Source of the DNA: Membranipora membranacea
Lineage: Eukaryota > Bryozoa > Gymnolaemata > Cheilostomatida > Membraniporidae
Direction of reading: 5' to 3'
NCBI GenBank assembly: GCA_914767715.1
Contig: OU612067.1
Coordinates: 21,240,162-21,304,161 of the forward strand
DNA: 64,000 bases
Numbering within the stretch: the first letter of the stretch is position 1; the number at the start of each line of letters is the position of its first letter. The notes beneath the pieces are model-generated. The model was not told where the DNA came from. It worked only from the letters and a program-made list of their open reading frames with translations, and did not search any database. The translations under genes and the position numbers were made by a program. Shown here piece by piece: positions 18,653 to 44,899 of this stretch.

Positions 18653-18662
18653 TTTATTTATT
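18653..18662 (-). promoter_or_regulatory. Candidate poly(A) signals of the transposase gene
   Basis: Two overlapping AATAAA hexamers on the minus strand lie about 130 nt beyond the transposase stop codon at 18789-18791. The position suits the 3' end of the transcript, but in AT-rich DNA such hexamers are frequent. Confidence 0.4.
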
Positions 18663-18788
18663 TTATAATAGAATGAACTGGTAGATGGGAATAAAAAAAT
18701 GGATATAGCAAAACCATCGCTGTATAAAAATAAGTATAAAAATGTATTGCAATAATAAAATAAAATGTGTCTTTGTAGTTGCAATCAA

Positions 18789-21700
18789 TCAATCAGCAAA
18801 CTCTAAAATCTTCTCCTGAATTGTGGTTCTGTATCGGCCCATGTCTGCCTACAATGTAAAAATGTTGATATTGTTGTCATTTGATCTTAAAGAGTCAATC
18901 TTAAAAATGCAAAAAAAAATTCAATGACCCTTCAATTATATATATTTACAGTTATTTTCAATTTATTTAAAAATTCATTAAACAGATATTTGTATGGCCG
19001 CTCATATAAAATCTTCTTATGTTCTGAAAAAACTGACCTGGCAGAAATCCATTTCACGTTCTTCAGCTAAGCATTCCGCGTATCGACAGACGAAAACTCC
19101 GCAGTCACTGCCATTCTCCTGCCTAGGTATGTCCTGAAAACATCAGATCATTATTTCGGGTAAACTAGTGATTGTACTGTTCTAGACTGAATAATAGCAT
19201 GATAATAATTTCTTTTTCCAAACATTTATTGACAAACAATCTTCATCATTAAAATGATGTTCTTCCGAATGAGCCAAAACAAATCATTTAATAAATATAA
19301 GAAGAAATATGGAAGATAAAAACTAACAATTAAAATGATTATGTCTTAGACATGAAATGCATAAATGCATGCTGCCGAAATACCTTCAAATTTTTTGCAG
19401 ACTTGATCTGTTGTGGAAGGCTATTGAATACAATTGAAAGATTGCAAAGATAAGTATTTGATTGAGGTTTCAGGAATTAATGTGTATCTCTCATCGGAAA
19501 GCGATGTATAGTCAACGAAAATTGCTCACATATATAACCTGGAGCCAACTGGGCAAGCTGTGGGAAGGGGAGAAGATTTAAGGATCTTGAAAGATCCTGA
19601 GTATATATCAGATGTTTTGGAATAAAATGTACCAAGGCGATAAGCCTAAAAGCCCGCTTTTGTTAAAAATCTATATCATAGAGAATTAACATATATTGAT
19701 TCAGTGAGAAAATTTGCTATTCCTAAATTCATACATACCCTCATTTGTCTTGACTTCCACATGCCACCGTACACAGAGGTGAAAAATTTCTCCATCTCAC
19801 TGGTACATTGTGTATTTTCTCCCATGGTGGAGTTGAAATAACTCAGTGTGTGATCTCTTGTTGAGGCAACCTAAATAAAATTAACTAACATCAAAGCCCA
19901 GATATCTACAGTGATAGAGAAAGCAAAGGTGAACGAGTGAGGATGACTTCTTGAACATTCAATACATTCATGATGGTGTTGATAGTGTCAAAGTTACTAA
20001 TAGTAAAATCAATACAGTCTGTAATTTGTATACAATTGTCTCAATTTAAAGTGTTTGTATGAATGGTTCTGTCATGCTTTAAACCATATTTCGTTCAAAT
20101 TTGAATAATCGGGATACTTACCAACAAAGTCCAGTGACCTGGCTCATGGATAGGCAGTAGGATCAGCCATCTCTCTGGCTGGCTCAGAGCTGGTCGAAAC
20201 TCCGCAATGGCCCTTTCCTGGCCAAGGCTTCTTAACATGACATAAAGAAATGTCGAGAGCGCACAGACATGTTTGTGTTGTTGGCTCAGTATTAACAAAT
20301 ACATATTTATGATCTGAAAATTAAAATAGCAATTGGCAGGTCGTAATATTTTTTGATTTATTAGAATCAAGGAAAAATTTTATCCTTGATAGGACAGCAC
20401 TGGTAGAGTTTAGAACAAGAGGACACCTATAATGGCATGGTGGAAACATAATTTGTCTTTTGATGTGGCCAAATATATTGATATGTTGTCTTGGCATTAC
20501 TTTTATGGGTATTCAAATTGATGGAAATAAGCATAAATGAATTCCACCCAAATTGTGTTTTGTTGAATGATATTAGCAAACTTTTTTGATCAGGATGCAG
20601 CTGATGTGTCCAACAATATCTTTACAACTGTTTTTCTCTTTATTGACAAAGGGCATGATTAGATTGTTTCAAGAAAAGATTTCTCTTCTGTCTTTTTCTT
20701 CTTACCTGATCATTTAGCCACTGTCCTGGAAGAAGAGTGTTTAGATCAGTTCTTCTTAGTGTAACTCCTCTGAATGATACCTGCCAGTTTGATTTCTAAA
20801 ACAACCATGTAACAAAATTGCCAAAAACATTTCAAAAATATTTATCATGCCAGTATACACTCCCAACACGCAGTTAAATTCAGACAGATTAGGTTTTGCA
20901 CTATCAATATTACCTGGTGTACCTCAATTGTTTTGTATCATGGGGAAATGTGGTAAATGTTTGGTAAATAATTGGATAAATATTATTATATATAAAGTAT
21001 TATTTTCTCAAGTGATTCTATAATTAATAATGGTTAGGCGTTTATAACATGCTTGATGTTATTCAACACAACAATTCTTCATCAGACTCTTCTTTGAAAA
21101 TCTACCCTTAGCGCTAAGAAGCAGTTTATTTTTGCTGACCCATCTTAGTGGATAATGTTCACCACATTACCTGTTCATTTAATAACTGGCCGGGCAGCAA
21201 CGTGTTGGGGCTAACAATCCATCTTCCACTGTCTATCTTGACCTGAAAAAACAAAAATATTGAAGCCCAAAGTTTTACACATTGTAATGCAAACATAATT
21301 CATCAAGTTGTCTTCTTTTTTTATGTACAAAGACAATTTAACTCCTTGCTGTTAGGCATGTTAACTTTTATCCATAGACTTAATACTAAACCTGGCCAAA
21401 CCTAGACAGGACATCATATACAGCTGAAGTGAGGCACTTAATTGTGGGCGACGTAACAACATAAGGAAGGTGTAGTTCATTGATTTACTGTGCACAATCT
21501 AGGATTTTTGTTTATAACACAATCAATTTTGATCGGATCTCGAGTTGGAAATTTGCTTTACTATCAGCAACATCTTGATATTAATTTGATGTTATTACTT
21601 CTTCAAAAAATCTTTTTTGCCTAAAATTTGTATCAAACTGTTCAGAACAAGCTGCTTAATCTATTGTAATTTTCAAACTCAATATCCAATCGAAATTGTT

Positions 21701-22190
21701 CTCAAGTTATCAACAAAAACCTGGATTTTGGACAGTAAATCAATGTAAAATTATTGCTTTTACACCTTCCAATGTCGTTACGTCACCCACAATTAAATGC
21801 CTCAATGCTAATGCTCCATTTAGTGTCCTGTCTAGGTTTAATATCAAGTCGATGGTTTCATCCGAATACTAAGATATAACACTGCTGCTCCTTAAATCTG
21901 TACAAAACACAGGAAATACAGCTTATAATTCAATTATACACATCAATTGTATTGCAAGCCGTCTAAAGATCACCCTCTGCCTGTTTGAAAAAAAAAGAGT
22001 AGCTGGTTACGGCAGGCAAAGGTGTATAGGGTCACTAACGTTAAATAGGACGGTCAAATATGACAGGTGGATAGAGCAAAAAAAGTCATGACAGAGATTC
22101 TGCTGCGATAAATGACATGTGAAAAATTTTAGATACGTTTAACATACCACATTTTTCATAGCCACCCCCTCGTCTTCATCTTCTGTTCCA
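18789..22190 (-). other. ULP1/SENP-type cysteine protease domain (residues about 1276-1502)
   Basis: Seven exons (22148-22190 down to 18789-18848). In order: an acidic TEDEDEG link, a first LLPGQLLNEQ exon, a second TLLPGQWLNDQ exon, IINMYLLILSQ, LLPIHEPGHWTLLV with catalytic His1403, SYFNST, then RQENGSDCGVFVCRYAE with oxyanion Gln1456 and nucleophile Cys1462, and ADMGRYRTTIQEKILEF before the stop. This is the C48 fold (SUMO/NEDD8-type deconjugases). The third triad residue, normally Asp in a YFDS-like strand, reads Asn1420 here, so the triad would be His-Asn-Cys. The two LLPGQ exons (21171-21242 and 20706-20795) are in phase 0 and either could be used alone or both together. ULP1 domains occur in some plant MULEs; a C-terminal fusion in one reading frame is the unusual point. 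Confidence 0.92.
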
Positions 22191-25100
22191 CTAGAAACGT
22201 ATAAGTTTGTGTTTGAATATATTGGTGTGATAAAATTGACGCAAGGACAAAGGATTTTCCCTTTTGTCCTCATTAATATTGCAGTAACAGCAAAATCATT
22301 GCATCAAATTTCAATGTTTAACATATTGTGGTGCAATAAACTTCAAATAAGAAAAAAGCACAGCCTATCAGTTTGTTGAGACATGCTTCCTGATATACAC
22401 GATTGTCTGAGTGAGTATTTCCACAAGCTAAAAGCCTTGTTGAAAAACTGCCAAAGTCTTCAACACCTACCTCTCAGGCACCCCAGCCATGACTGGCTCC
22501 AAATCCATCTTTGTACATTGGTATGACCCATACCTCAGCAGCTTCAAGATATTTTGTTCTTTTTCGAAGTTGGAAAAAGCAGTTGAAAGAGCCTTCTCAG
22601 TATTCCTCTGTTTTCGTGAAACGATTCTGCTGGTCTGCCCGATTCCAATTGTCTCCAGCTCATTTGAAAATGATATTTCTTGCTGAAGAAGCCTCTCTAC
22701 CAGCACCCAAACATTATGGTGTTCACCAATGAGGCGATTTATCTCATTGTGATATCCTTTGAAATAAATTAATTTTGTCAAATTCAGTAAGGTGCTATGT
22801 CTAAGACTATATGTCTATTAGATAATCTTATAATTATGTACGTACAAGACCTACAGGTGTAAAGTGATCGCCGCAGAAATGGCTTGATTTACAGATAGCT
22901 TGCATTTTCACACCCTCTTCCGAGCCAAAAGAGTGATAGCTACCAATAGGTCAAACTCAATCTAGCTAAACTAGACTTAAGCTAACACTTACAATATTAT
23001 AATGTCGGTATTTGGATATAAATCAGAGCACACAAACTTAACTACTGGGTCTTTCAATTATTATTGAAACATTATTTTGCTCAATCACATGCTTACCTTC
23101 TAAATCATTATTCGTACGTATCTTCCTACGAAAAACACTGAATGCATTGACCGTCCATTTCTTGATCCAGTTCTTTTCGTAGTATTCCAACAGCCTTAGT
23201 GCTGCAGCTGAGCTTGCTATAGTCTTCAGCCAGGCAAATGTCTGGCCTATGACCTCTGGCGGAAGGATGGCCAAGCTCATCACCATGTGGATGAAATTCC
23301 TGGTATCATAGTCACCTCTGTAGGCAGCATACCAGCCTTCAAAGAATGAGATATTATTCATATAGCTGATTATTTCTATCATTGACACCACTAAGAGTCG
23401 GATGTAGGCCTAATGAAATCAAAAGGACTTTTCCTGGTATTTCTCATCGCTGAAATTATTTTACTATGTATTAAATCCTTCAGAACGTCCAATCTACCTT
23501 CAAACGGAGAACGAACTGGTGCATTTATTGCAGCTTCACCTCCCAAGGCGAGACCTATTATCCAAAGATAAATCTTTGGCAAATTCGGGGAACAGATCCA
23601 TTCAAATAACGACAAAATTAAGGAACATCAATATTTTAGTTTATGCATTTTCCAAAAGGTTTAGAAATATTAAAACAGATAACCTTTACTTTTAAATAAT
23701 CTGGTTTAACGTAAAGGGTGTCCTCACCTTTGTTACTCTTGACAAACTTCATAATGGCCTGTTTGTGGTGATATAAGCAGCCATGCATCACTACTGACGG
23801 GAACACTTCTCTTACAGCCGCCCAAAGACCTAAATAAAATTAACCAGTCATTGGATGGAATCACAACATTATTGAAATACATTTTTGTCAATAAGTGTTG
23901 CATATATTATGTTATGAGTCCATTTGAGAGTGATGTGGAAAGAAGACACATTGTGGCAATCTTTAAATGTAAATTCAGTTCAAATACAGTTGTCTTACCC
24001 ATTTCAAAATCTGCCGTTATCACTTCCACATCATAGGTCATCAGGGATTTTATGAAGTTAAGCACCTGTAATACACAGGACACACATGTAGATTCAAGCT
24101 TATAAATATGAAGCCTATGCCCTCAGTTTGTTACCCAAGTCAGACTGCAGGTGATTTATCAATCCTGCTTATCAATAGTAGACTGAAACACTCACACTGC
24201 AAACTCATCAATGCCAGTTGTCTAAAGCAGCGCACAATTTGTCTCATATTGAAGTCGATTGATTGACACTAGGGTCTGAAAGTTTTATGTGCGTCCGAGA
24301 ACCAAGACAGTCGTGTCAGAATCCCACCAGGAAACAAAATAACAGGGAAACTCCTCGATTAAACTGCCAGTTGACGTGTTTTTATACTCACTGCAATATA
24401 GTCTTCCTTCTTCCTCTTGGCCATGATAACATACAAAAAGGGAAGCTGCTTCATAGCATCCCCCTTTCTCACAAAACAGTTTATAGTTAATAGTTGGCAG
24501 AATGGTTTCCTGACTACTTTGAACGTGCCATCAATGTACCTGCAACACGAAACCATTACATTACACCACAAATGGGTCTCTTGAATGAATAAGGTAAGGC
24601 ATGTCGAAAATCTTCACCTGACTCTCACTATATATAATGCATTATTAAAGCAAGAACCAAGAGGCAAAGATACACTTCTTGCAGACTTGTGAAGAATAGA
24701 AAACAAAAATTTTCCAGTTTATTCTGCGACATCCCATAGATCATGATTTTGTTTTCTGTTTTGTTATTATAATGGCTATGTTAGATGGTTTTTGTATACA
24801 CGCGTTCACATGCACAACCCTCCTCAATACCATGTATGATGAATCCTAACAACAAAACTCACAATTTGAGGTATCAATTCTTTGCATGTGTTTATAGTCA
24901 TTACTACTTCATATCAAGCTACATACCAGTGTTTTCGAGACTGCAGAAGATCCATCTGCTTCTTTGTACTCACAAATATATGTTTATTGTCTCCTACAAC
25001 AATTTCCTGCACTACTGTGTCTTCTGAATTGAATTTGTCTGGTATCTGCAAAATGAGATATTTAATTTCACAGTGGTCTGGATGTCTTAGTCGGGGATCC

Positions 25101-28100
25101 CGGGGTCAAAATCCATGTTGAAAGTGTAAAAGCTGAGTTTCATACATTATTGAGTATAAGTGTTATATTTTTGTATTCCAACCTCAGAACAGGTATCACA
25201 AGGGAGGTTTCATGGAATTTTACTCATGTTAATCAGGGGGGACAACTTTTTCCATAATCAACCTTTCAGAACATATCTTTAACTTGTGATAAAAGTTCTC
25301 AATATTTTGAGCTAATGCTCTGGGTATGGTTTCCTGATACCATAAGCTTTTCATAGAAATTAAAAATCACTTAACCAGAATGTTGATGCGCTGCTAAACT
25401 TTTGTGTTTGTCATCTTTAAAGTTTTTTTTGCAATTATCTATGGGCTTGTCAGATAAACTGAATCAGCAGAAATTTTTATAAATGTCTAGAGAATGATCA
25501 TTGAAAAATTTATTCAGATATCTCTGATCAGTTGGAAATTATAATGAATTCAATCCGAGTATGCCCCTTTATGAATGGAGTGAATTGACGTAACGCTATA
25601 CAATGCTGATGGTATTGTGTGCAATTGTTGCAAATTCTAGGTGTTTAGCTGTTTTTATCTTCCAGCGATGTTGTAGGATGGGATAGGATGGGATGGGATG
25701 GGATGGGATGGGATGGGATGGGATGGGATGGGATGGGATGGGATGGGATGGGATGGGATGGGATGGGATGGGATGGGATGGGATGGGATGGGATGGGATG
25801 GGATGGGATGGGATGGGATGGGATGGGATGGGATGGGATGGGATGGGATGGGATGGGATGGGATGGGATGGGATGGGATGGGATGGGATGGGATGGGATG
25901 GGATGGGATGGGATGGGATGGGATGGGATGGGATGGGATGGGATGGGATGGGATGGGATGGGATGGGATGGGATGGGATGGGATGGGATGGGATGGGATG
26001 GGATGGGATGGGATGGGATGGGATGGGATGGGATGGGATGGGATGGGATGGGATGGGATGGGATGGGATGGGATGGGATGGGATGGGATGGGATGGGATG
26101 GGATGGGATGGGATGGGATGGGGTTTAAATGACTGATGATGGCCTATTTAAAAAACGAATACAGCTGGTATAAAACTATCATGGTATCAAGTAGTTCTAG
26201 TTTTGGCACTGAAAAAAGATTGTCTACCACTATATATAACAATGATTGAGAATGTGATTTAGCCTTTATACAGTGTAGTTATTTCCTGTATACTCAATGA
26301 ATTTTCTTGTTATATTTAAATATAAGCCCAAACCTCAAAGCCATAGTTGTTTGGATGTTTAGCAATCTCTTTCTTCCTGTGGTATCTAATCAGTTGCTTG
26401 CAGTTTATCTTGTTCTTGCAGGAGCGGCTTGGCAACTTGCCTCCGGAGTTTTTCATATCGACAAATTTTTCATGGAGCATTATTGCTGGTCTGGTGTGAC
26501 TCTGGCCTGTAGCCTGATTTCTAAGCTGAAACAATCAGTCAATAAATTGATGGTTGAAGATCCGAGAAAGATTTTGTTACCAATAGTTGAGCAGTCTGTC
26601 ATGTTTCTACACTCAATAAGTTATTACCTAGTTTTAGGGATCCAAATGATGAATGCTGTTATTAGATAATGGAATGCTATAAAATAAGGCTTGCAGAGCA
26701 GCTGAAGCTACCATTGTTTTTTTTAAAAAAAAAAATTAATTTATATTCTTACAGTAAGTCGAAATAGAGAGTCTTCCATAATGTTGGGGTTTGCCTCATG
26801 ACTGGTGTGTGTCCTTCCATTTTCAACAAACCTGCCACTCTGCTTACACATCCTAACAACCACTTTACAGACTGGTCTCCGACTGCATCGGAATGTAGTC
26901 CAGAACTAAAAATAAATGCATAACAGATTGTTGGGTAAAAAAGCTGATGTGAGAACCCTCAGAGGTAAAGGATAAATCCTGGGGATGTTATATTTGCTGG
27001 CAAATCCAGTTAATACAGGATAAACATCATCTAGCGTTTTTTTTGCAACACATTTAAGCTACATTTAAGCTAAGTTTCCCACGCCGGGGGCTGTCGGGCG
27101 GTGGGCAAAAGTCTGGGGGGGGGGGGGGGGGGGGGGCTCAGACTACAATTAAAGCTGGTTGTTGCGGGTTAAGGTATATTACCCTATACAAGTGACCAGA
27201 GCTTCCAAGACATCAAAAATTGACTCACTTCTGAAGAGTCTGACTTCTCAGTCAGCTTGTAACCTCGTCTATCAATCAAGACACGATGGCCTTTATTTGA
27301 TCCTTTATCCACAACAACATATGGTTCACTGATATCTTCATCTTCAAAGTTTCCTTTCTCAGGAAATGGGTCAGATATTTCCTCGTCCCTGCAATTACAT
27401 TCAAAGGGTCATTTCATGAAGCGATAAATCTAAAAATCTCAGATTTGGAAAAATGAATATTATCTCTATATTGAGATTCACAATTTAAATTGATCGAAAA
27501 TCTATTTTTGAATCTAAATTTAATTACATTTTGAGCAGGAACTAACTCCAGTTTTGGGTTTTTTACACATTACAGCACTTTCTATAATGCTGTCTGTTTA
27601 CCATCACATACATAAGATATTGAATAAATAACGTTTTGCCAACCTTTCTTGAGGATCCGGTGGTATTGAATAATTGGTTATGGCAATCAGTGGATTACTG
27701 GAATCATCCTTGAAATAAATAAATAAACATTATTAATCCTTCGATATCCTAAAGGATCAACTATTAGTTTAACCTTTCTCCGGTCCATTATACCTCATAA
27801 AAAGTCCAATCCATAATTGTGATTCACAGGGTTATCCACTCATAAAGAAAGAGGGGACAACTTTAAAAAAAGATACTCAGAAAAAAATTAAGAACCATCA
27901 TTATGAACAATCACGATACACAATCAAACAATCAATGCTGAACTCTGCTGGCTAGATCTAAACCAAAGTGATTGAGTAAGATGAACATGTCTGGTGGAAC
28001 AGGGAGACAGGCAAAAAGCGACATTCATACCAATAAAGCAGTGGTTGGCTGGTCCTCAGGCAGTTCATTCTTTGTAGTTTGTGATGACTTTCTAAGATCA

Positions 28101-31100
28101 CCTTGTAGTGTTTCTTGTTCCTGCGTTAATTGATTCTGATCTACTGCCAGCTGAGTTAGAGGAGTTAGAGGAGTTAGAGGAGTCAACGGTCCCTGATCTG
28201 CTAGGGTCTGTTTTTGAGGAGTGTGTAGCTTTGTGCTCACCAACGGACTCTTATCTGCTAGGGTCTGTGTTAGAAGAGTGTGTAGCTTTGTGCTCACCAA
28301 CGGACTCTTATCTGCTAGGGTCTGTGTTTGAAGAGTGTGTAGCTTTGTGCTCACCAATGGTCTCTTATCTGCTAGTTTCTGTTTTTGAGGAGTGTGTAGC
28401 CTTCTGATCACCAACGGACTCTTATCTGCTAGTTTCTGTTTTTGAGGAGTGTGTACTCCAGGGTAATAAGGTAACTGGTTCGGAATTGCCCTCTCACGTT
28501 AAAACCTTCCAAAATGAAGAGTTGCCCTCTCTCTTCGAATTTTCACAGGCTTTGATATGATTGGCCCATTACATCTTACTTTTTTCTTATTGGCCTGTTC
28601 AATGACTTCATACTGATTACAATATCTGTGTTGGGGAACACTGAGTTAGTTATCGATATTGCTAGTAGTCAACTTTCTGAACAGCAGTCGGACTCAGTGG
28701 CACCAATCAGTTACTTCACAGACACATAAGACCACGATGAAGAGATGATGAGCCAACTCAGCTTCACAAGAAGAAGAAGAATGAAATTAGAACAGCTGTG
28801 AATGGACTTGATTGAATCAATTTGTTGTAGCTCTCAGTCTCAGCAGGTCTCAGCTGGTCTCAGGTATGGTAAATAAATGTTATTTAGTATTTATATTTGG
28901 TACACTACTATTCTACTACTCAGTTGTGAGTGAAAAATGAGTAGACTAACTAAGAAGTCTAGCTAGTAACTGTTAGTTACTATCACTACTAGTAACTTTC
29001 TGTAGTTTGCCAATGGTACCAGTCCAATGTACATGTGCAGTGTAATATCAAGCAAGGAGAAGGACTCCTAAGAGTTGTAAGAGGGGGGGGGGGGGGAAGG
29101 CTCATACAAGTCCAAGGAGTTTACTCCTTACTCTTCGCTTTGTTGTTTGTTGGTGGTGGCATGTTTAGGTGGGCAACTCTCGTGCAACTAATTGTCTAGA
29201 ACTGTTATTGCTAATCTACTATGGCTACATGTAGGCCTACATACTTTACATTGTAAGGAAATGCCCCCTCTCTTTACTACAACTACAGCCTATGTAGGCT
29301 GGGTCTTGTATTTGTATAAAGTGTGTGCATAGGCTTTGCCTCGGCGCAACTGACGGATCATTATTGCTTTATGTCAACCATTCCCAACTGTCTGAGACTG
29401 GTGGGGTCACCCTTAAATACAAACAGCAAAACTATATACATATTAGTATACACTTTATTTACTGATCAAGCATGCGCATATATGACCAAGTGGTACATCA
29501 TCATCTAGCTTAGTAGGCGAGACCTGCTTTTAGCTTCGTTCGAGAATTGGCCACTAATCAATTGAACTATGCTCACTCTTGTGTGAACTATTTGCGAACA
29601 AATTTATCTAAGGAGCGAGGATATTGAGCATTTAAGTTGTAATGATCTTTTGGTTTACAAAGCACAGCTCATGCTAATTGAAATATTCCCTGGTCTATAA
29701 TGTAATAAAGAATATACCAACCCCGATCACCAGAGGAAGGAAACCAGTGCAGACCTTGCCTTTTGCCAATGGTATTGAATTCAAATGATTTGTTGGCTGT
29801 ACAGAGTCTCAACTGCGTCACAGTGGTCATTTCATTATAATAAGCAGTGATCAGGGAGGGGGGCGGATTGCATATAATATTACATGTGTGGGCTCTTTGA
29901 GTTGCAAGCATGTACTTCGCCTTAATTCAGGGTCAACCACTGACAACCATTGGTTATAGTGGTCTGTAGTTGGAGAGTAGAGAAATTGGTTACTGAGAGA
30001 AACTAGACCATTGCCAGCTTGCACACAATTGCAAAAGTTTCCCATATGTAAATCTTCATCAATAGAATGGTGTGTTCAAGTGTTGTAGAGGTACTAGCTC
30101 TCTAGAGTATAACGCTGGTTTAATTATTCGTCTTGTTAATTTGGGAAAAAAGTAGATAGGCCTAGATACAAGAAATGACTCCTTTTGATTGCAGATTTTT
30201 TTGTATTTTAGTCTACATTGTAAAGCAACACAGACCGCAAAATAGTACTGAGAACAGTACAATGAAGAAGAGAGTGTTTGGGTGGTTTATAGCAGATGTG
30301 ATACAACTCGTAGTATCAATAGTCGTTCAGCTTACTCAATTCAAACAGGTAAGCAGACAATCAAATTTTCAATTTCGGTTGTAAAATTTGATTAAGTTGC
30401 AGCAGGGAACTGACCCAGAAAGGCTTGAGATGGCTGGGGTTATAAGCATCGATATCTCCACTGTTACACTTGCATCGAGCATCGTTAGTAATATAATGAT
30501 ATAAATGTCAGGTGATATGTGTAGGCTAACTGATGATAATTGCGTCGGTGTAATCGTTGAAGTATCATGGCATAAATTTGGTAAAAACTGCTTGAACACT
30601 GGCAGGCCTCAGCAAGAATTTTTCATTGAAGCCAGCCAGTTAGTGTAATTAGGAGTTCAGTGACTATCGGAGTTGTGCTCTTTTTTTCATGGAGGGAACA
30701 ACTCATTCCATCTCGCAACATCAAGTCACCTCTTCCCTATATTCCACCCTCCTTGCCACAGCTCATTATCTTGAATGATCATTTTAGTTACAAATTTGCT
30801 GGCGTTATGTGCTGATCAAACCTATAGATCGAGTGTTTCCATTCCAAGACACCAGATATAAAACTTCACAAACTTCTTCACCAACGGCTGGCAAATCTGT
30901 TTCCATCATAGGGATTGTAGATTTAACCAGGTCTTTAAGTGTTGTGTTATTTGTAATTTGGCAACATGCTAGAATCAGGCTCTCAATGCAGAGAAAATTG
31001 AAGGGTCCAGGGATGAACCTTGTAGCAGCAAAGCCTTGTTATAAGACTGCAGATAATTTGAATGCAAATAATGTACTTAGGACATTGGAATGTATTATAT

Positions 31101-34100: not shown

Positions 34101-37100
34101 TAATGTTGTTTCACCTTGGGCCTGACACTGAGCTTATATATATTGCTTTCGCTTTGCATACTTTTGTCTTTTGTGATAGTATGGTACTTCAAAAAGTGCT
34201 GTTTTGATGTGGCCGTGTGGGCCTACATACATCTCAATTCGGAGTTTAGTGGACAGTCATAGCTTCATCATAATCTATAGACGGCATACAATAGATAGCT
34301 GTCAGGACGTCATTTCTCACAGATATACTCATATATGGTGTCCCAAACTCCGCACATAATTTTTTTCTACAACAATCTTACCGTTGTTTTGACTTCACAT
34401 CATGAAATTTCTACATACAAGATTATTTTTTACAGTTTTACTATTTGGAGGAGTGAACGTAGAATGGGGACAGTGACTCAGAAGATATACGACAGAGCAT
34501 CATACTCAGCAGTTTTCTCACACCTTGTCACCCACCACCAATAACTCCAGCTTCAAAGAAGCACACTCTGCTGATGCTCTCTTTGTTACACTTGGAACTG
34601 AAGTTGTGAAGACAACAGGGACAAATACCCCCCCCCCCCCCACCCAAGGTATGTATGGGCTTGCATGATCACCAATGCTTATCTATCAATATTTCGGGAG
34701 TCATCAGCAAAATTATTATGTCAAACAATGTAATCCTCTGATTCATGATTGTTGCTACATCACTTAGGCGCGTATTATATATAGTTTTTTTTGGTGATGG
34801 CATCACAAATCAGTAAAATAATGTGTAGGCACATTTTCTTTTTAGCAGCAGCATGGCTTCGAATGGTCTGACACCACAAATTTTTATATCATTGGATTGC
34901 TCATCTTCTGAGGAACACAGTGGTTACTTTCTTTAGTAAACAAGGAAAATATCTATTAACATATCGAAAGCTTTATGGAAAACAGTTAAAAAATGATATA
35001 AATTGCTGCCCTGCTGCCGGCTTATGTATGCAATTATTCCACTTTCATGGGGGCAAAGAAATTCACAGTTTGTGAGTGTGTCCTGAAAATCTGAGGTCTG
35101 TAGCTAAATAATCGCTTATGCCAGCTACAAAAGAAGCTTTCTCTAAAGCATCACAAATCAGTAAAATAATGTGTAGGCACATTTTCTTTTGAGCAGCAGC
35201 ATGGCTTCGAATGGTCTGACACCACAAATTTTTATATCATTGGATTGCTCATCTTCTGAGGAACACAGTGGTTATTTTCTTTAGTAAACAAGGAAAATAT
35301 CTACCAACATATCAAAAGCTTTATGGAAAACAGTTAAAAAATTATATTAATTGCTGCCCTGCTGCCGGCTTATGTATGAAATTATTCCACTTTCATGGGG
35401 GGGCAAAGAAATACACAGTTTGTGAGTGTGCCCTGAAAATCTGAGGTCTGTAGCTCAATATTTTCTTATGCCAGCTACAAAAGAAGCTTTTTCTAAAGCA
35501 TCAAAAATCAGTAAAACAATGTGTAGCCAAATTATCTTTTGAGCAGCAGCATAACTTCTAAAGGTCTGACAGCACAAATTTTTATATCATTGGATTCCTC
35601 ATCTCCCGAGGAACATAGTGTTAATTTTTTTAGTAAAAAAGGAAAACATCTTCCAACATTTTGAGAGCTTTAGTGAAAACAGTTTGAAAATGATAAAATT
35701 GCTGCCCTGCTGCCGGCATATGTATGCAACTACTCCATTTTCATGGCGGGTATTTTTGAGTGTGATCTGAAAATCTGAGGTCTGTAGCTCGACAACTTAT
35801 TTTGTTTGCAACAAAAAAGGCTTCCTCTTTACAATCATTATGATTTATAGCCATATTGAGAGTATAAAAAATTTGTCACCAACTCGAACCTAGAGCTCTG
35901 CGTTGACGAAATAGAGAATTATCCACTGAGCTACACAGACATGTTGTATCAAAATAAGAGTGTCTGCCTTAAATTTAGTGGAGCATGAATTCTGTATTAC
36001 AATAATTACATTACATTACCGATGATGAATACACACACAATCAGCATATTTGTGCACAGCTAAATCATCACAAATCAATAAAATAATGTAGAAGCACATT
36101 TTCTTTTGAGCAGCAGCATGGCTTCAAATGGTCTGACACCACAAATTTTTATATCATTGGATTGCTCATCTTCTGAGGAACATAGTGGTTATTTTCTTTA
36201 GTAAACAAGGAAAATATCTACCAACATATCGAAAGCTTTACGGAAAACGGTTAAAAAATGATATAAATTGCTGCCCTGCTGCCGGCTTATGTATGCAATT
36301 ATTCCACTTTCATGGGGGGCAAAGAAATACACAGTTTGTGAGTGTGTCCTGAAAATTTGAGGTCTGTAGCTTGATAACTTTTTATGCCAGCCACAAAAGA
36401 AGTTTTTCGCTTTATAATTTATATGATTTTTGGCCTTTTCGACATGTGGAGATAACTCGGGTTCACAAAATTACCTTATATGCCCTGAGTAGCTTTGTGC
36501 TCACCAATGGTCTCTTATCTGCTAGTTTCTGTTTTTGAGGAGTGTGTAGCTTTGTGCTCACCAACGGACTCTTATCTGCTAGGGTCTGTGTTTGAAGAGT
36601 GTGTAGCTTTGTGCTCACCAACGGACTCTTATCTGCTAGGGTCTGTGTTTGAAGAGTGTGTAGCTTTGTGCTCACCAATGGTCTCTTATCTGCTAGTTTC
36701 TGTTTTTGAGGAGTGTGTAGCCTTCTTATCACCAATGGACTCTTATCTGCTAGGGTCTGTGTTAGAGGAGTGTGTAGCTTTGTGCTCACCAACGGTCTCT
36801 TATCTGCTAGGGTCTGTGTGAGTGGATTACTGGAATCATCCTTGAAATAAATAAATAAACATTATCAATCCTTCAATATCCTAAAGGATCAAATATCAGT
36901 TTAACCTTTCTCAAGTGCATTATGCCTCATAAAAAGTCCAATCCACAATTGTGATTCACAGAGTTATCCACTTATAAAGAAAGAGGGGACAACTTTAAAA
37001 AAAGATACTCAGAAAAAAATTAAGAACCATCATTATGAACAATCACAATACACAATCAAACAATCAATGCTGAACTCTGCTGGCTAGATCTAAACCAAAG

Positions 37101-40100
37101 TGATTGAGTAAGATGAACAAGCTTGGTGAAACAGGGAGACAGGCAAAAAGCGACATTCATACCAATAAAGCAGTGGTTGGCTGGTTCTCAGGCAGTTCAT
37201 TCTTTGTTGTTTGTGATGACTTTCTAAGATCACCTTGTAGTGTTTCTTGTTCCTGCGTTAATTGATTCTGATCTACTGCCAGCTGAGTTAGAGGAGTTAG
37301 AGGAGTTAGAGGAGTCAACGGTCCCTGATCTGCTAGGGTCTGTTTTTGAGGAGTGTGTAGCTTTGTGCTCACCAACGGACTCTTATCTGCTAGGGTCTGT
37401 TTTTGAAGAGTGTGTAGCTTGGTGCTCACCAACGGTCTCTGATCCGCTAGGGTCTGAGTTAGATGCGTTGGTGATAGACTTCTTGCTCTTAATGGGCTCT
37501 GATCTGCTAGGGTCTGAGTTAGATGCGTTGGTGATGGACTTCTTGCTCTTAATGGACTCTGATCTGCTAGGGTCTGAGTTAGATGCGTTGGTGATGGACT
37601 TCTTGCTCTTAATGGGCTCTGATCCGCTGGCGGCTGAGTTGGAGGTGTTGGTGATGGTCTGTTGACTCTAAATGGGATCTGTAGTACCGTTGATGAGCTT
37701 TGCAACTGGAGATCCAGATTATGATGTGGTTTCTGTGGTTTAGAATTGGTAGATACGAGCTACAATTTATGAAAATAGAATTCATCATTTCCTTCAATTT
37801 TTGAGTGGTTTGCTGAGAAAACTGCACACAAAAGCTGTAGTAATGAACAGTGTTATTTCTTTTACAAATTATAGATTCGTATCAAATCATAGTACTGACA
37901 TATTACTAGAAAGTCCCATATAACTTACCGAGGAAATGCTTGTAGCGATCTGACCGAATAGCATTTGTATCAACTCAAATTTGTTTGACAAGTCCTCAAG
38001 GACTGGATTTTCTTCCAACCGATAAATGACAAACTGGACATCCGCAAGGTTGATCACATCATACTGGTTCTATGAAAAACAAACATATCCAATAATTAAT
38101 GTTGAAACAATTTTAACTTTGTGGCTTCAATCTGCTATCAAGTCTGATCTAAACAAATTTACTTTGATCTACCCTTTCACTCAGGCGCTGAGATACATCT
38201 ATTCAGATGTAACAGTTGCACAACTGTTGTTAATATGACAAGGGAAGAACACCAACTCTGATTGTGAAAACTGAATATTCCAGTAATATTGATCACCCTT
38301 GTCAAAATCCAAGGTTGACACTGAGAGCAGTGTTAGCTGGAAACACATAATTACATACCTTTTTCAAGTCACTCTGTTTTATGACTTTTCCTGCAGCCAC
38401 AACTAGACAAATGTGATACTGGGTCTACAAAAACCATGAAGAATTATATGATGATATGATAGGTCATCGTCTAGCTAGACTCTAGAAAGATAGACGACAC
38501 TGGGAACTGGGTGACAGGGTATCCAAATGTAGGTGAATCTGCAGTCTGTATATTGGCAAGTCATTCTAGCCATAATTTTTAGGCCATGTTGACTAAATAT
38601 AGGACATATTAACAGTATGTAGGATAGATTGACATATTTTATCTAAAACAAATTTAGGTTCCAACACTGAAAAATGAATGAAATTCCAGTAAAAGTCTAC
38701 AGTCCAGCCAACAACCAATTCTTCCACAGATTCAGGTTAAATTTTAACTAAAAAATGGTAAAATCTAAATTCATCTCACTGTATTCAACTGAAGGTGACG
38801 AGGCAAAGATACATCCAACTTGATTCTCTTAGCATGAACTCTGAGACATAAAATGTCAGCCAAGCTATGTACATGAGTGGTAACCTTAGCTTCAACTACA
38901 TGATCACAACTGCAAAAAAAAAGATGTATCTAACATAAATATACATGCATTTGCTAGAGCAATTATCTGTCTGGTGTATGGGTCCTGGATATCTACGGTA
39001 AATGGTGGAGACTTGTTCTCAAATCATGCACCACATGTAAGAATGGTTTCAATTTAATTGATGTTTATGGAACATAAAATTAAACTTCCATAGCATCTTA
39101 CAATTCAGACATGACCATTTTGTCAGTAATAAGATCGAGAGCATTTACTACTCACTTTATACAGCTGTGTGCTGTGACTCTTTGCTGTTGGCCATAGTTT
39201 TGGATGGAGTTCTGGACATCGTCACTCTTCCCCTGCAATTTTAATCATTGTTAATTAGTGTGTTGTGACAATGGATGTTTTGGCTGTTTACCAGAATGAG
39301 CCAAAAACCAAAAAAGACAATTAATTTACAAACTATTCAAACACAAGATGAAATATGGCAGATATAGTTCCAGACAACAAATCCTACTTATTACACAATT
39401 AACATCACGAAGACATGGGTATAGGAAACTAGGTTTCAGAGTAGAGCATATAATGGGAAAGCAATAAATACACATGTATGTGACGACATTCGATTGCATA
39501 CATAAACATGAAGCGAAAGAACCAACTTACTTTTACTATAAGAGGAAATGAAAAGAGTTTCTTTTGCTCCTCTGTGTCCAGCTTGCAGTATGTGCACCTG
39601 GTTGTCCCGGTGGTGTTACTGCTGAGTTTATCAATGAATAACTCACTGCAAAGACACATGTGGAATAAATAACTGCAGCTTACTCATATCATTAGATATT
39701 GTAAAAGAGACTAGAAGGAATACTGCATGATGTTGTTGGTTATTCTGGCTTTGTTCTCACATTTATGTGATGATTTATTTCACAAGGTAAAAACATCTGC
39801 TAATCAATCAAAAGAAAACAATAATATTACATTGCAGTGCAACAGGTAGACATCGAAGTATCAGCTGCAAGTTTTCAGAAAACTCTCAATTCATAAACAG
39901 ATAGGTTTTGGGTGTTCTGCTCTTGGTTAATTAATAAACAAAAATACACTGAAAAATTTATCAAAGTGAGAGAAATAAGAAAGCTTTTTGGCCACCAGAG
40001 AGGTTCTCTAATAGTGTGCTTACCTTGAACAGTGTCTCGTTATTAACTCAACAACTGCTTCATACAAATCGCTGACATCGCAGCTGTCATCTATATCACC

Positions 40101-43100
40101 TAAAACAATTTAAGCAAAGCAGGTCGTAAATTGTTGTCAACATGTCATTGAATAATTGAATAGGTAATAGAGCTGAGGGCTTCTGTATTAAAAGAGGCGA
40201 ATCTTATTGCCAAACTGTTTGGAAAATCATTGTCGATTCTTAACAAATGATACAACAAAATGGCTCTGGATAACCGGGATAACCTCTCAGTCACAGGGGA
40301 CGGGAAATGATGATGCTGTGTCTCAACAGAGAGTCAAGTGTATTTACTGTGTTTTTTGCTGATGTCATTTGGCATGCGAGTAATTTCAATCCTTTAAAAA
40401 GCTGCCATCGGACTACAGAAAATCTACCGAGTTGGTATGAAAATCCTAAATGATTTGTGTATTTGAAGCCCTCAACCTTGAGTGTGAGTCAATACCATAA
40501 TGGACTAGCAGAAATCTCCATCCGAAAAACCAACATAAAAATTCTTAAATGCATGATGCATAGTTTTATATTTATGGTTAAGTATGGTATGGCAAGGGGG
40601 TCAGTGTTGCTTCCAGCTTAGAAAAATAGCTGTTCCAGTGCTTTTTCATTGGAGAGATTGGTAATGTGCAGTTTGAGCACTCCCTTGCAAATTCGTAATG
40701 AGCCATATTCTGTTCACTTGCAAGGATGGTGATTATCCATTTTATGTTTTGATGCGGCAAGTTAGTTTATTTGCTCTTTTCCTTGTATGCTCTTGATTGC
40801 AGAGGGAGGGTATTTCATTGACTGTGCTCAATAACAGAATATAACAACCCCTTTTCCTTCCAATTTAAATATGAAAATGCACCTTCAATGCATGCCGGAT
40901 AACCTCATAGTATTAATAAAGAATCTATTAGCTTCCTCAGATTGAGAGTTTCTTCCATGAAAACAATACCGCAACTCATATTTTTAAAGTATAAAAGATC
41001 TACAAAATTATGGTGAAGCTGACACAGGAGAGGTATACACCCGAGGGTGCTGGGGGCTGGAACAATCAACAATGAAAGCTCCCCCTGACACAGATCTAAT
41101 AATAGAAGATTTCAATAAGTGACTTAAGATAATGGGACATGGGGTAATAATGAACTGCTTCAGCTCATTTACTTTGTTCAAAATTTACTAGCAATACTTT
41201 ACGGTAAGTGTCAAAAGTTATTTTGAGAGTGACGGATTTCCAACAAGTGAATTGTGGAAAATCAAATTCTTTTTCCACAGTGCTGCACATTCAACTATTA
41301 TTTCATTGCTTGAATGTCTGTGAGAGCTGTGATTCAGAAAAAAAGTGACAATAATTTATTTGAGGCCAATTTGGTGCACCTGCTCTCGGGTTAGGCAAGA
41401 ATAGAGTAAGGTCCGAAAATGTGGCCTATTCCTATTCATTTGGTGCCCTATCAATCTGGGAGATACTAAATTTTGCCTTAATTTCATGGGGTGAGAATGG
41501 ATTGAGATTACAAGAAAATATTTATTGAAAACATTGAAATACATTTGGAAGAGGATCTTTGCGCATTAAATTAAAAAATGTTGTATTAAAAAGGGAGACA
41601 GAAACCCTGTTTGGAAATGTGATCAGGCACTTGGAGCAAACGTAGACCTGTTACAGTGCTATCTACCATCTGTATAATAAAGATACCATCATAGGATATG
41701 GCGCTAAAGAGATATCATCACTATGCTGAACTGGGCTTAACCAAGAAACTCATTATTCAATGTTTACCATAAACACAGTCTTATATGTGATATCTGGATT
41801 GGGTGAAACATACCAGCAAGAAAAGAAAATGCATTATACGTCGTAATTAGTTAATTATAATACAACCTTTCAAAAATAATAAGCACAATAATAGACACTA
41901 GCTTTGAGAGAGAAGATCAAAGACATTTACTTTAAAAATCTGTGGACATCACATTATCAATCTATGTAAAATCAGTTGCACTATCACCATTATTGTTCAT
42001 AAAATCCACACAGGGATTGTTTCATATCAAATGAAGGCCAGCCATCAGCACAAACAGCTGCAAATTCTTTTACTGTCATATGAGGAGATATAGGATCACA
42101 ATTTAGATGTCCTCCACCTACATATAGTAGGTGTTTCTGGACATCAAGTGAGTTGCCTTCTCTTTTGCAATGAAGGCAAAACTCTTAACAAGAATAGCAA
42201 TCAATGACCGTTGTTGAGCAATTGACAAGTTTATCCGGAGCGAATAATTTAATAATCATACATAAGTGGGCAAACAGAAACTTTTCCATTCAGCAGTTAA
42301 ATGCAAGCAAAACAGTTACTCATAACAAGTTTTTTTATTCCCAAGGCATTTGTACGTTTTATTACAATTGGATTTGTTTTGTGAATATTACACAAATCAA
42401 ATTATTATTCTCTTATACAAATAAACTTTTACAGCATTACCAGACAAACCAGGTTTGTTATAAAATTTTTGCGATGCAATGCATGGCAAATCAGTCACTG
42501 ATAGAGTGAACAGGAACCAGTGCGCAGGGTTTTTCCCAGTTTCAGCCTGTGATTCTTGAGCCGCAACTAAGTCGCTAGGATAAACGCTCCGATATGTTAT
42601 TGCTTTGGTATCTTATAACAACATTTCTGGTACTTGTACTCCTGTCCCATGACCATAGTTATAACATAAACTACAATAATGATGAATTGATTACATTTAA
42701 TATTATCAGAGATCATATATTGATAAAAATGACTCACTTTGGATAAGCTGACATGCAGGCTGTTCGGTCAAACAAAGCAAACATCGAGGGTCTACAAGCG
42801 AGAGCAGCGCTATAAACTGGCATGTAAATGAGATACGCTCTTAATATTTTCACATTATCAATGAATTATTATAAATATCAGACCTAGTCCATGGAAGAGG
42901 GGTTTGACAACTCCTAGTAATGAACAATTGACAACCACAACCAATACGAGTAATAATCAGCTACATGGTAATGTAAACCATTTTGATTTTAAGAAATTTA
43001 GGGTTTTCTAATCTGAAACTTCAAATATACATGTCATGGCCATGACTACAATCATAAGAAGTTTCCTAGGGAAATATCACATCTCATAGCACATATTGTT

Positions 43101-44204
43101 CTGCAGAACGGTATCATAAAGGCGCAGACATACCTGACTGCTGCTTACAAAGAACAATGACCATTACAAGTAGATTAGATTAATTACCTCTACAATTCTC
43201 TGTATTTTTCAGGTTCCTTTTTATCTCCTGCAATATAGTCAGGGCAATATCTCTAGAAAAGAAAAAGGGATAACTATCAAGCCGAGATCTAAAATCTGAA
43301 GTGAGCTCAGAAAGTGCACCGCTTGAGCTAGCTTGACTTGAGGTAACATCGAACAGAACTTGTCAAAACAGGCTAGGGCCCAGGACTTGAGTCCTTAAGG
43401 GGATCATGGTTTGGCTATTTCAAATGAAGCAAAACAAAAACAAAAAAGTGAAAGCATCAATATAGCAGTAACAGACTTACACTTTCTCTTTAGGCTTTAA
43501 AAGCAAATATAAGCATGACACAGCAAAATAAAACATGACATATATTGTGGAAACAACATAGAAAAAAAACTAATTTCTTCATCGCTATATCTCTATACAT
43601 TTCACTGTGTACCTGACAAACGTATTATTTGTTCTCACAGTTAGGAACTTATGGAGTCAACAAATTTAATGTTTATTTGACTTGGCAACTTATTGTGTAA
43701 AAGTAGAACACACAGGTGATCTACCCTAGATGAAATGGTGAATGGATGCGAATAACGCCATAGGCAAAACCAAGCTTAAAGCTTGCATCAGAATTTCTGT
43801 CCTTCAGGAAACAAATTAATATCATGTGTATCATACTTTAACGTGGTGCTTTAACCACAATTTTAAAGCATAACATTAGGATAACAACTCACCAGTTTGT
43901 TGCGGCGCATTGAGCGCTTCATCCTGAGGAGACTATTACACACACCTTTACCCTGGTACCTGTTGAGAATGAGAATATCATCTGTAGTGAGGGTGAAATT
44001 GACCGTGAAATGCTCTTTTGGCTGCACTCAGCTAATAAGCCGGATGTTGGCCATGGCTGGTCTGCCACACATTGCCCCTCTCCCCATTTCGAGCAATCAG
44101 GCCAACACATTGGCTTGCATGGGACTTCTTTCTGATAGGGATGCTATCATGTAGCCTTACTCCTTGCCTGACTTGAAGGGGAGGAAAGCAATTACCCAAA
44201 TCAT
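18789..44204 (-). CDS. USP-like / FLYWCH / MULE transposase / ULP1 protease fusion protein
   Basis: Exons (high to low): 44161-44204, 43893-43959, 43481-43494, 43188-43252, 42738-42809, 40024-40099, 39531-39645, 39156-39232, 38780-38909, 38359-38424, 37929-38069, 37163-37759, 36490-36840 joined across the nested insertion to 28031-28453, 27644-27708, 27229-27388, 26753-26905, 26334-26525, 24927-25045, 24392-24539, 23999-24065, 23728-23829, 23097-23390, 22471-22756, 22148-22190, 21171-21242, 20706-20795, 20122-20313, 19739-19870, 19038-19133, 18789-18848. Every junction is GT-AG and every phase matches, giving 4,509 nt or about 1,502 residues. That agreement over 29 junctions is the main evidence for a single gene. 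The start at 44204 is tentative; an in-frame Met at 43922 is the alternative. As it stands the gene is split by the 8-kb insertion at 28456-36489 unless that is spliced out. Role (inference): transposase of the host element, with two added peptidase-type domains. Confidence 0.75.
25679..26122 (+). repeat. (GGGAT)n microsatellite, about 88 copies
   Basis: A nearly pure 5-bp repeat of 444 bp lies in the intron between the 26334-26525 and 24927-25045 exons of the transposase gene. The plus strand has GGG runs every 5 bp, separated by AT. This is a strong G-quadruplex pattern; the transcribed RNA (minus) is the C-rich complement. Open frames of Met-Gly-Trp-Asp-Gly repeats in all three plus frames are by-products of the 5-bp period. 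Confidence 0.98.
27115..27136 (+). repeat. Poly(G) tract (22 G)
   Basis: A homopolymer run lies in the intron between the two FLYWCH exons. Similar G runs occur at 29083-29096 and 57913-57929, and a C run near 34629. Lengths of such runs are error-prone in assemblies. Confidence 0.9.
27709..28030 (-). repeat. Duplicated intron, downstream copy (322 bp)
   Basis: This intron follows the second linker exon and is the same length as 36841-37162, with only scattered substitutions between the two. Its acceptor leads into GATGATTCCAGTAATCCACTG, the start of the DDSSNPL... exon, as does the upstream copy. The pair marks a tandem duplication inside the transposase gene. Confidence 0.9.
28905..29003 (+). 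repeat. Dispersed repeat, copy 1
   Basis: A roughly 95-bp segment containing GAGTAGACTAACTAAGAAG and ending in AGTAGTTTGCCAAT recurs at about 32083-32180 with few changes. Both copies lie inside the 8-kb insertion in the same orientation. Confidence 0.75.
30262..31982 (+). other. Possible spliced exons, unrecognised
   Basis: Three plus-strand stretches have exon-like borders: ATG at 30262 to a GTAAGC donor at 30349 (29 residues, hydrophobic centre); 31139 to about 31243 between TTGCAG and GTGAGT; and about 31905 to a stop near 31981 after TTTTAG. The last two join in phase. I recognise no family and the first does not join the second cleanly, so this may be chance. A real small gene carried by the 8-kb insertion is the alternative. 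Confidence 0.2.
32046..32116. repeat. Perfect 34-bp inverted repeat with 3-bp spacer
   Basis: 32046-32079 and 32083-32116 are exact reverse complements separated by GGT, so a long hairpin could form. The right arm continues into the dispersed repeat also found at 28905. The structure looks like two ends of that repeat meeting head to head or a small fold-back element. Confidence 0.9.
32180..34800. other. No gene seen
   Basis: AT-rich filler within the 8-kb insertion. A 45-bp phrase around AAGTGTTGTGTTATTTGTAA is shared between about 30940 and 32405. The open frames at 33606-33809 and 34335-34544 show no recognisable domain or convincing exon borders. Confidence 0.4.
34801..36420 (+). repeat. 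About 350-bp tandem repeat, four copies, one disrupted
   Basis: Units begin at 34801, 35149, 35499 and 36066 with CATCACAAATCAGTAAAATA or a close variant, and share ATTGCTGCCCTGCTGCCGGC later in the unit. Copies 1, 2 and 4 are alike; copy 3 is more diverged. Between copies 3 and 4 lies about 245 bp of foreign sequence with a tRNA-like segment. No coding frame is conserved among copies. Confidence 0.88.
35875..35940 (-). pseudogene. tRNA-like remnant (probable tRNA-derived SINE)
   Basis: Read on the minus strand, this has an A-box-like TAGCTCAGTGG and, about 35 nt later, a B-box-like GGTTCGAGTTG, the internal promoter elements of tRNA genes. The anticodon arm does not pair properly and the acceptor stem cannot be completed, so it is not a working tRNA. 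It lies in the foreign segment that interrupts the 350-bp tandem repeat, as a short interspersed element would. Confidence 0.5.
36841..37162 (-). repeat. Duplicated intron, upstream copy (322 bp)
   Basis: Partner of 27709-28030: equal length, same splice borders, scattered substitutions. It separates the first linker exon (37163-37759) from the hybrid second linker exon, whose first seven codons (DDSSNPL) are copied from the exon at 27644-27708. Confidence 0.9.
37929..44204 (-). other. USP-type deubiquitinase-like domain (residues about 1-289)
   Basis: The first eleven exons encode a ubiquitin-specific-protease-like region. Seen: a Cys-box-like GKGVCNSLL (Cys22), then SDLYEAVVELITRHC, then a fingers-like block with CTYC (C130, C133) and FSFPLIVKG, VQNSIQNYG, and CINC (C175, C178). 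The paired CxxC motifs match the USP zinc ribbon. After this comes SLADILCLRVHAKR, in the place where USPs have the 'LP..L...LKRF' strand, then QYHICLVVAAGK and FVIYRLEE near the expected C-terminus. Missing: a recognisable GHY histidine box, and two residues of the Cys box, so deubiquitinase activity is doubtful. It may act as a ubiquitin-binding or scaffold domain. A 14-nt exon (43481-43494) is needed to keep frame. Alternative: an unrelated zinc-ribbon domain of similar layout. Confidence 0.55.
40100..42737 (-). other. Large transposase-gene intron, nothing else seen
   Basis: This 2.6-kb intron separates the QPACQLIQ exon from the DVSDLYEAVVEL exon. Open frames at 40578-40760, 41356-41544 and 42204-42509 have no recognisable domain. 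No second inverted repeat or RNA gene was noticed. Confidence 0.5.
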
Positions 44205-44544
44205 TACCAAACAGCCTGACAACCAAGGTTACTCATTGCTAACAACAATAAATTCCCATCACTCAATGTTTGCAAAAACATGTAGTTGTTGCGCATGGGA
44301 AAGTATTCCAGACACACAATACATATTTATTTATTAATTATACACATACATTTGCAAGGGCCATGGTTGAGTTCATTTTGATTTAACCTATGACTAAATT
44401 ACAACAAGAAAAATGATGTAATCTCTGCTAAAAAAAACTCTAGCTGTCAATAGTAGTATCACCTGTCAAATAGGTGTCACCACATATTTTGAATCTTCTA
44501 ACAGAAAAATGACAATTCTTGAACTGGTGAACTGGTAGGCAGGC
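44205..44544. other. Region between transposase start and right TIR
   Basis: A promoter and any untranslated leader of the minus-strand gene would be expected here. I see no convincing TATA box at a fixed distance, and no gene on the plus strand. Confidence 0.35.
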
Positions 44545-44899
44545 AGGAGTGGGGGGTCCATAACCCCACCCCAGATAGCCTACCATAGCTATGTATATAT
44601 TCCATATTTTACCTTTAACTATGACAAAAGTTAAATACTGTGTAGTAACATCTTCAGGGATTGGTTGGGTCATTTTCATATATGGGTGTGATTGGTTGGG
44701 TCATTTTCATATAGGTTTCTGATTGGTTGGGTCATTTTCATTTCCGGTTATAGACTTTTTGTGACCTGCCAATATCGGAATGAGTCGGACAGCCTAAGAT
44801 GACCCTGACCTCGGGTCATTTTCATTATGCAGGTCATCTTCATTCCAGGTCATTTCGATCTCAGGTCATTTTCATTCTGGGTCATTTTCATAGTGATTC
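44545..44899 (-). repeat. Right terminal inverted repeat
   Basis: Reverse complement of the left end, with the same CAACCAATC-containing subterminal repeats (about 44655-44745, two to three units). The segment 44790-44890 adds extra variants of GGTCATTTTCATT not all present on the left. The last 21 bp align to the left end base for base in length but with mismatches at the extreme tip. Confidence 0.85.

What the first reader, a model, noticed from the sequence alone, without database searches (positions are those of the whole stretch)
18789..44204. One transposon gene fusing a USP-like domain, FLYWCH finger, MULE transposase and ULP1 protease
Seen: 30 exons with GT-AG borders, all 29 junctions in phase, total length an exact multiple of three, and domain motifs in a logical order. 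Known: ULP1 proteases occur in some plant Mutator elements and FLYWCH fingers in animal ones. I know of no description of a transposase flanked in one polypeptide by a deubiquitinase-like and a deSUMOylase-like domain. Inference: the element may edit ubiquitin and SUMO on itself or on host repair and chromatin factors at integration sites.
Basis: partly seen in the sequence, partly recalled or inferred. Interest (0 to 1): 0.92.

Follow-up and report, generated by a model that had tools for sequence, protein, structure and literature searches.

The report
Bryozoan jumping gene carrying protease domains
In the genome of a sea mat (a bryozoan), a large Mutator-type jumping gene appears to encode one long protein joining its DNA-cutting enzyme to a SUMO-protease domain and a degenerate deubiquitinase domain, and related elements in the same genome carry intact-looking deubiquitinases at the same spot.

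Summary
The gene is real and lies on the minus strand inside a 29,777-bp Mutator-like element (15123-44899) of Membranipora membranacea chromosome 3. The element sits in a 334-bp satellite array with an 8-bp target duplication. MULE transposase and ULP1 domains pass Pfam cut-offs. The USP-like part is weak alone (UCH_1 E=0.0026, below cut-off), but a second, multi-copy family (C) carries a clear USP (PF00443 E=9e-15) in the same place before FLYWCH and MULE, with a matching 115-nt exon. A third family (B) carries an OTU deubiquitinase there. So an N-terminal deubiquitinase slot looks real. In the window copy, however, the catalytic His is Gln and the Cys box is altered: probably a pseudo-enzyme. 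The ULP1 keeps Cys, His and Gln but has Asn for Asp. Joining of ULP1 to the transposase is likely, not proven: the unspliced transposase exon stops exactly at the splice donor. MULE+ULP1, MULE+OTU and Helitrons with interchangeable DUBs are in print; USP-FLYWCH-MULE-ULP1 was not found in my searches. New variant of a known kind.

The parts
15115..15122 (.). left target-site duplication TTTTTTAA in the 334-bp satellite
15123..44899 (-). whole element, 29,777 bp (gene runs on the minus strand)
   Evidence: ends and TSD; 26 other right ends elsewhere pair with a facing left end
44900..44907 (.). right target-site duplication TTTTTTAA
15123..15382 (+). left terminus GGAAAACATTGAAAATGACCC... with 31-bp subterminal repeats (15242-15382)
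44659..44899 (-). right terminus GAATCACTATGAAAATGACCC... (read inward) with inverted 31-bp repeats (44659-44741)
44161..44204 (-). putative first exon with ATG; uncertain
   Evidence: absent from the C4 copy
37929..43959 (-). USP-like region, exons 43893-43959, 43188-43227, 42738-42791, 40024-40099, 39531-39645, 39156-39232, 38780-38909, 38359-38424, 37929-38069
   Evidence: UCH_1 0.0026; BLASTP to family C 8e-4; second copy C4:8902940-8909323
37163..37759 (-). linker exon of 57/60-bp repeats
28456..36488 (.). stretch without match in the C4 copy, flanked by 57-bp repeats
27229..27708 (-). acidic exons 27644-27708 and 27229-27388 (start of FLYWCH-like finger)
26753..26905 (-). second half of FLYWCH-like finger (FRC-x5-C ... 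HTSH)
   Evidence: counterpart in family C is PF04500 5.7e-6
22471..26525 (-). MULE transposase, exons 26334-26525, 24927-25045, 24392-24539, 23999-24065, 23728-23829, 23097-23336, 22471-22756; D702, D767, E884 of the model
   Evidence: PF10551 3e-9
22148..22190 (-). small acidic exon joining transposase to ULP1 (holds an in-frame ATG)
20706..21242 (-). two similar ULP1 first exons, 21171-21242 and 20706-20795
18789..20313 (-). ULP1 (C48) catalytic exons 20122-20313, 19739-19870, 19038-19133, 18789-18848; H1108, N1125, Q1161, C1167
   Evidence: PF02902 1.1e-19; SENP1 5.4e-25
21371..21857 (.). palindromic MITE inside an intron, matching both strands at over 30 places
   Evidence: 40 of 2222 candidates scored

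Best explanation
A cut-and-paste Mutator-like (MULE) element of M. membranacea whose transposase gene is built as N-terminal deubiquitinase module, long linker, FLYWCH finger, MULE DDE core and, in this lineage, a C-terminal ULP1 module. Shown by computation: element ends, 8-bp duplication, MULE and ULP1 domains, recurrence of an N-terminal deubiquitinase module in two other families. Inferred: the finger and core bind the subterminal repeats, excise and insert the element and also mobilise the 2.6-5.8 kb derivatives; the protease modules strip ubiquitin or SUMO from the transposase itself or from nearby repair/chromatin proteins, keeping the complex stable. In this lineage ubiquitin cleavage appears lost (pseudo-USP, perhaps still a binding module) and ULP1 would supply the isopeptidase activity, if Asn can stand for Asp as in papain (recalled).
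For: MULE and C48 Pfam hits; ends and TSD: 7 of 10 elements checked have exact 8-bp TSDs, 2 more have one mismatch (8 and 9 bp), 1 none; 27 of 30 right ends entered pair with a facing left end, 24 of them at 2.6-5.8 kb; USP PF00443 9e-15, FLYWCH 5.7e-6, MULE 5.2e-10 at one family C locus; OTU PF02338 3.4e-7 and MULE 4.6e-10 at one family B locus, OTU upstream of MULE at 3 near-identical loci; USP exon of 115 nt, phase 2 to 0, in both window and family C; shared intron positions in the MULE core, read by eye; low dN/dS for MULE (0.20-0.43 in 10 of 10 family A stretches) and ULP1 (0.14-0.57 in 6 of 8 stretches; 2 saturated); amphioxus LOC144928580 has MULE then C48 in one predicted chain.
Against: No transcript data used. 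USP exons show no constraint against the C4 copy (dN/dS 0.88, 5 synonymous and 17 nonsynonymous changes, that copy being frameshifted). Unspliced, the last MULE exon reads VPER-TAG at the donor; relatives A1 and A2a lack that donor, A1 stopping six codons after VPE; A2b keeps it. ULP1 pieces occur without transposase. Only one intact full copy. In family C 12 of 14 USP loci match in two frames, so probably frameshifted; in family B only 3 of 18 close MULE loci have an OTU match, the rest also lacking the first MULE exon. The dN/dS stretches were picked by tblastn and lean low, and one ULP1 stretch is partly misaligned.
Confidence: 0.66

Rival explanations
1. Two genes in one element: a USP-FLYWCH-MULE transposase that ends at VPER-stop, and a separate ULP1 gene starting at the ATG in exon 22148-22190, as in plant MULEs with a separate ULP gene.
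For: The stop codon overlaps the donor; relative A1 ends there without a donor, A2a lacks it too; decayed ULP1 pieces stand alone; plant KI-MULEs carry ULP in reverse orientation to mudrA (PMC2528002 passages).
Against: Donor AG|GTAGGT with in-phase continuation through six ULP1 exons after the joining exon; donor kept in relative A2b; MULE-then-C48 in one predicted amphioxus chain.
Confidence: 0.25
2. The element captured unrelated host exons (Pack-MULE style); the USP-like exons are passengers and not part of the transposase protein.
For: Weak Pfam score, His to Gln, no constraint against the C4 copy.
Against: USP upstream of MULE in 10 of 14 family C loci, same exon size and phase, another deubiquitinase class at the same place in family B.
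Confidence: 0.1
3. The N-terminal part is not USP at all; the resemblance is chance around a CxxC pair.
For: No hit in 697 candidate proteins at E<=1; the PDB sequence search gave one match at E=0.67 to another protein; PF00443 itself did not report it.
Against: UCH_1 was the only Pfam family reported at E<=10; collinear alignment to the clear USP of family C and the 115-nt exon match.
Confidence: 0.07

Closest known systems
Mutator-like elements with ULP1 (hydra, lancelet, plants)
   Same: MULE transposase and ULP1 in one element; MULE TSDs are 8-11 bp
   Different: No USP-like module reported in the passages read
MuDR-6_HM (Hydra), MULE with an ovarian-tumour domain
   Same: MULE plus OTU, like family B here
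   Different: Only its table row was seen; no zinc finger or ULP1 listed there
Ginger1 transposons
   Same: OTU or Ulp1 joined to a transposase, idea of ubiquitin/SUMO editing
   Different: Gypsy-integrase-like transposase, protease at the C-terminus
Helitrons with VTD and/or OTU deubiquitinases
   Same: Different DUB classes serve the same element type
   Different: Rolling-circle transposons (PMC9741609 passages)
T. vaginalis transposase_11 + Peptidase C19 protein
   Same: USP-class peptidase joined to a transposase
   Different: Other transposase family; cited in PMC2836005
Amphioxus LOC144928580 (P0001)
   Same: MULE then C48 in one chain
   Different: FAR1/ZSWIM type, no USP in its Pfam list, keeps catalytic Asp

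Membership tests
MULE superfamily | MULE DDE domain with D, D, E | tested here: met
   PF10551 3e-9; D702, D767, E884 placed by motif
MULE superfamily | TSD of 8-11 bp | tested here: met
   8 bp here; 7 of 10 exact; family B 9 bp CTCGTTCAC
MULE superfamily | terminal inverted repeats | tested here: met
   the outermost 9-10 bases differ between the ends
FLYWCH finger | PF04500 match, C-x5-C ... H-x-H | tested here: inconclusive
   not reported for the window; family B 0.038 below cut-off; family C 5.7e-6 above
USP / peptidase C19 | sequence match above Pfam cut-off | tested here: not met
   UCH_1 17.9 bits, cut-off 22.2; family C relative met, 55.4 bits against 23.9
USP / peptidase C19 | catalytic Cys and His boxes | tested here: not met
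   His position is Gln225; Cys box shortened (motif recalled)
ULP1 / peptidase C48 | C48 domain | tested here: met
   PF02902 1.1e-19; SENP1 5.4e-25
ULP1 / peptidase C48 | His-Asp-Cys triad | tested here: not met
   H1108 and C1167 kept, Asp is Asn1125; Asn also in the C3:30093 and C6:26415 pieces
Active element | transcription and transposition | not testable with these tools
   no RNA reads held

The most novel reading that the evidence does not exclude
Bryozoan MULE transposases have a fixed N-terminal slot in which deubiquitinases of unrelated families (USP, OTU) are exchanged, and in one lineage deubiquitinase activity has been traded for a C-terminal deSUMOylase in the same polypeptide, so removing ubiquitin-like modifiers is a conserved requirement of the transposase.
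Probability: 0.4. Interest if true: 0.82.

Novelty: new variant of a known kind. Interest (0 to 1): 0.64.

Why it matters
Protease domains turn up again and again in unrelated DNA transposons, and why is open. One genome with three related transposase families carrying a pseudo-USP plus ULP1, an intact-looking USP, or an OTU makes the question testable: remove the protease activity and measure excision. If the exchange is real, deubiquitination or deSUMOylation is part of how these elements move or survive host control.

Tried and rejected
Homologues by protein search: the MULE+ULP1 part gave 2 hits at E<=0.01 among 8000 scored candidates; the USP part none at E<=1 of 697 candidates; the family C FLYWCH-MULE part none at E<=0.001 of 1346 candidates. 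Candidates must share 5-residue words and have 0.55-1.75 times the query length, so absence means little.

dN/dS on USP against the C4 copy was uninformative. USP in family A: no match at E<=1 in the two loci read (A1, A2), which are decayed. Opposite-strand coding in the gene region: with repeats masked it falls to 46, within the shuffle range of 29-48. My first gene-finder chain took an exon from the MITE and was corrected by hand. Structure prediction was not tried: it takes only proteins that the DNA gives letter for letter, and this one is spliced. Rejected: that phase alone proves one gene (shuffles).

Not answered: DNA search with window:37700-44204, with window:44030-44408, and the PF00443 genome search.

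Full report
Where it is. Contig lengths of the window's assembly (e.g. 41,072,641 bp for the longest) match Membranipora membranacea GCA_914767715.1 (PMC10290214, passages); the window is on chromosome 3.

The element. A 334-bp satellite fills 1-15122 and 44900-53176. Between them lies a unit with inverted ends and 31-bp subterminal repeats, bounded by TTTTTTAA on both sides: 15123-44899, 29,777 bp. The left end has 52 and the right end 49 listed matches in the genome, 40 candidates scored each. I entered 32 of the 52 left and 30 of the 49 right matches, chosen by eye and leaving out mostly partial ones: 27 of the 30 right ends pair with a facing left end (28 combinations, one right end having two partners): 24 at 2.6-5.8 kb, two at about 14 kb, and the window at 29.8 kb. 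I read the outer ends of 9 pairs plus the window: 7 of 10 have an exact 8-bp duplication at the termini, one 8 bp and one 9 bp with a mismatch, one none (the two mismatch cases were read by eye from its output).

The gene. My model has 28 GT-AG exons and 1207 residues. Pfam: MULE 3e-9 and C48 1.1e-19 above cut-off, UCH_1 0.0026 below, FLYWCH not reported. The region 28456-36488 between those repeats has no match in the C4 copy. Two similar ULP1 first exons follow each other.

Other copies. USP exons occur once more, at C4:8902940-8909323, in the same order (one further weak match, E=0.17, on C7). That element is 91-96% alike over the long matched stretches, lacks transposase and ULP1, and is frameshifted. 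So the USP exons belong to the mobile unit. ULP1 matches outside the window lie at C3:30091-30094, C6:26415, C7:15241, C6:22286 and C1:7158 (kb); 7 of those 10 rows show stops, though some rows of the window's own exons do too. The first two places were read and show no transposase at E<=0.01.

Related families (124 of 317 candidates scored; the grouping is mine). Family A: about 60-75% identity over short stretches of the transposase, decayed, mostly on chromosome 7. Family B: about 50% in its best stretch, near-identical copies; B1 and B2 are 99.4% alike over 8.65 kb. At B1 the predicted N-terminus is OTU (PF02338 3.4e-7), followed by a repeat linker, a FLYWCH-like finger (0.038, below cut-off) and MULE (4.6e-10); the MULE match ends about 280 bp before the inverted terminal repeat, so no room for ULP1 there. 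OTU exons are intact at 3 loci, each followed by MULE exons; 15 of 18 close family B MULE loci have no OTU match and also lack the first MULE exon, as deletion derivatives would. B1 has 9-bp duplications CTCGTTCAC. Family C: at locus C1 UCH PF00443 9e-15, long linker, FLYWCH 5.7e-6, MULE 5.2e-10 in that order; 14 USP loci in the genome, of which 10 have a MULE exon 6.3-6.9 kb downstream on the same strand. In 12 of the 14 the first USP exon matches in two frames, so they probably carry a frameshift; C1 is one of the two that do not. Genes of B and C are predictions of my own script.

Homology of the USP module. Window exon 39531-39645 and family C exon 3276-3390 of the C1 locus are both 115 nt, phase 2 to 0, ending ...FPLIVK and ...LPLNVK. 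BLASTP of the two modules: 24% over 165 residues, E=8e-4 for a single comparison; GHY of family C stands against NQY of the window. The C4 copy has the same NQY. Hence pseudo-enzyme is the likeliest reading. In the ULP1, His1108, Gln1161 and Cys1167 are kept and Asn1125 stands for Asp, also in the two decayed relatives that I read. Papain uses Asn (recalled), so activity is open.

Selection. MULE stretches against family A give dN/dS 0.20-0.43 (10 of 10), against family B 0.14 (2 of 8, the other 6 saturated); ULP1 0.14-0.57 (6 of 8, 2 saturated). The stretches were chosen by tblastn, which leans low. The USP comparison (0.88) has no power.

The weak joint. Without splicing, exon 22471-22756 reads VPER-TAG, the TAG lying in the donor GTAGGT. 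Relative A1 lacks the donor and stops six codons after VPE; A2a lacks it; A2b keeps it. A separate ULP1 gene or two isoforms remain possible.

Literature (8 of 10 searches used). No paper held all of Mutator-like, transposase, ULP1 and FLYWCH. Ginger paper passages: Ulp1 in Mutator elements of hydra and lancelet, OTU or Ulp1 in Ginger1, a T. vaginalis transposase with peptidase C19, and the proposal that the ubiquitin pathway takes part in transposition. MULE survey PMC6446971, passages including part of Table 1: an ovarian-tumour domain in MuDR-6_HM, FLYWCH in several groups; the words ulp1, otu and peptidase are not in its main text. Arthropod MULE survey PMC13359780, passages: ulp1, otu, protease, ubiquitin and FLYWCH do not occur in its main text. 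PMC9741609, passages: Helitrons carry VTD and OTU deubiquitinases beside or instead of each other. Grapevine paper, passages: ULP in both orientations in MULEs. Most subscription papers are not held, so absence of USP-MULE fusions in print is only what these searches show.

Verdict.

Noticed in passing
G000 chromosome 7, 0.16-5.2 Mb: 12 of 14 family C USP loci lie on chromosome 7, all within its first 5.2 Mb; family A transposase matches are mostly on chromosome 7 too, further along. Local amplification or a region of little recombination?
   Followed up: no
window 21371-21857: Palindromic MITE in an intron, matching both strands at over 30 places.
   Followed up: partly
window 57055-60159 (+): Reading frames that to my eye belong to a RecQ-type helicase beside the satellite: DEAD 4.5e-4 (below cut-off) and Helicase_C 4.1e-13.
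   Followed up: no
window 25676-26122: 89 copies of GGATG in an intron.
   Followed up: no
window 17556-18089 (-): Open frame that to my eye resembles a non-LTR reverse-transcriptase end; no Pfam match at 0.1.
   Followed up: partly
L021-L023, joined offset 13977-15376: The family C locus C1 carries a family B 3' end (90% and 81% identity), and 8 C copies show a B-like match 2.7-3.3 kb downstream of the MULE exon, so the two families recombined.
   Followed up: partly
window 34820-36480: A stretch of about 400 bp seems to recur four times in the middle region (read by eye).
   Followed up: no
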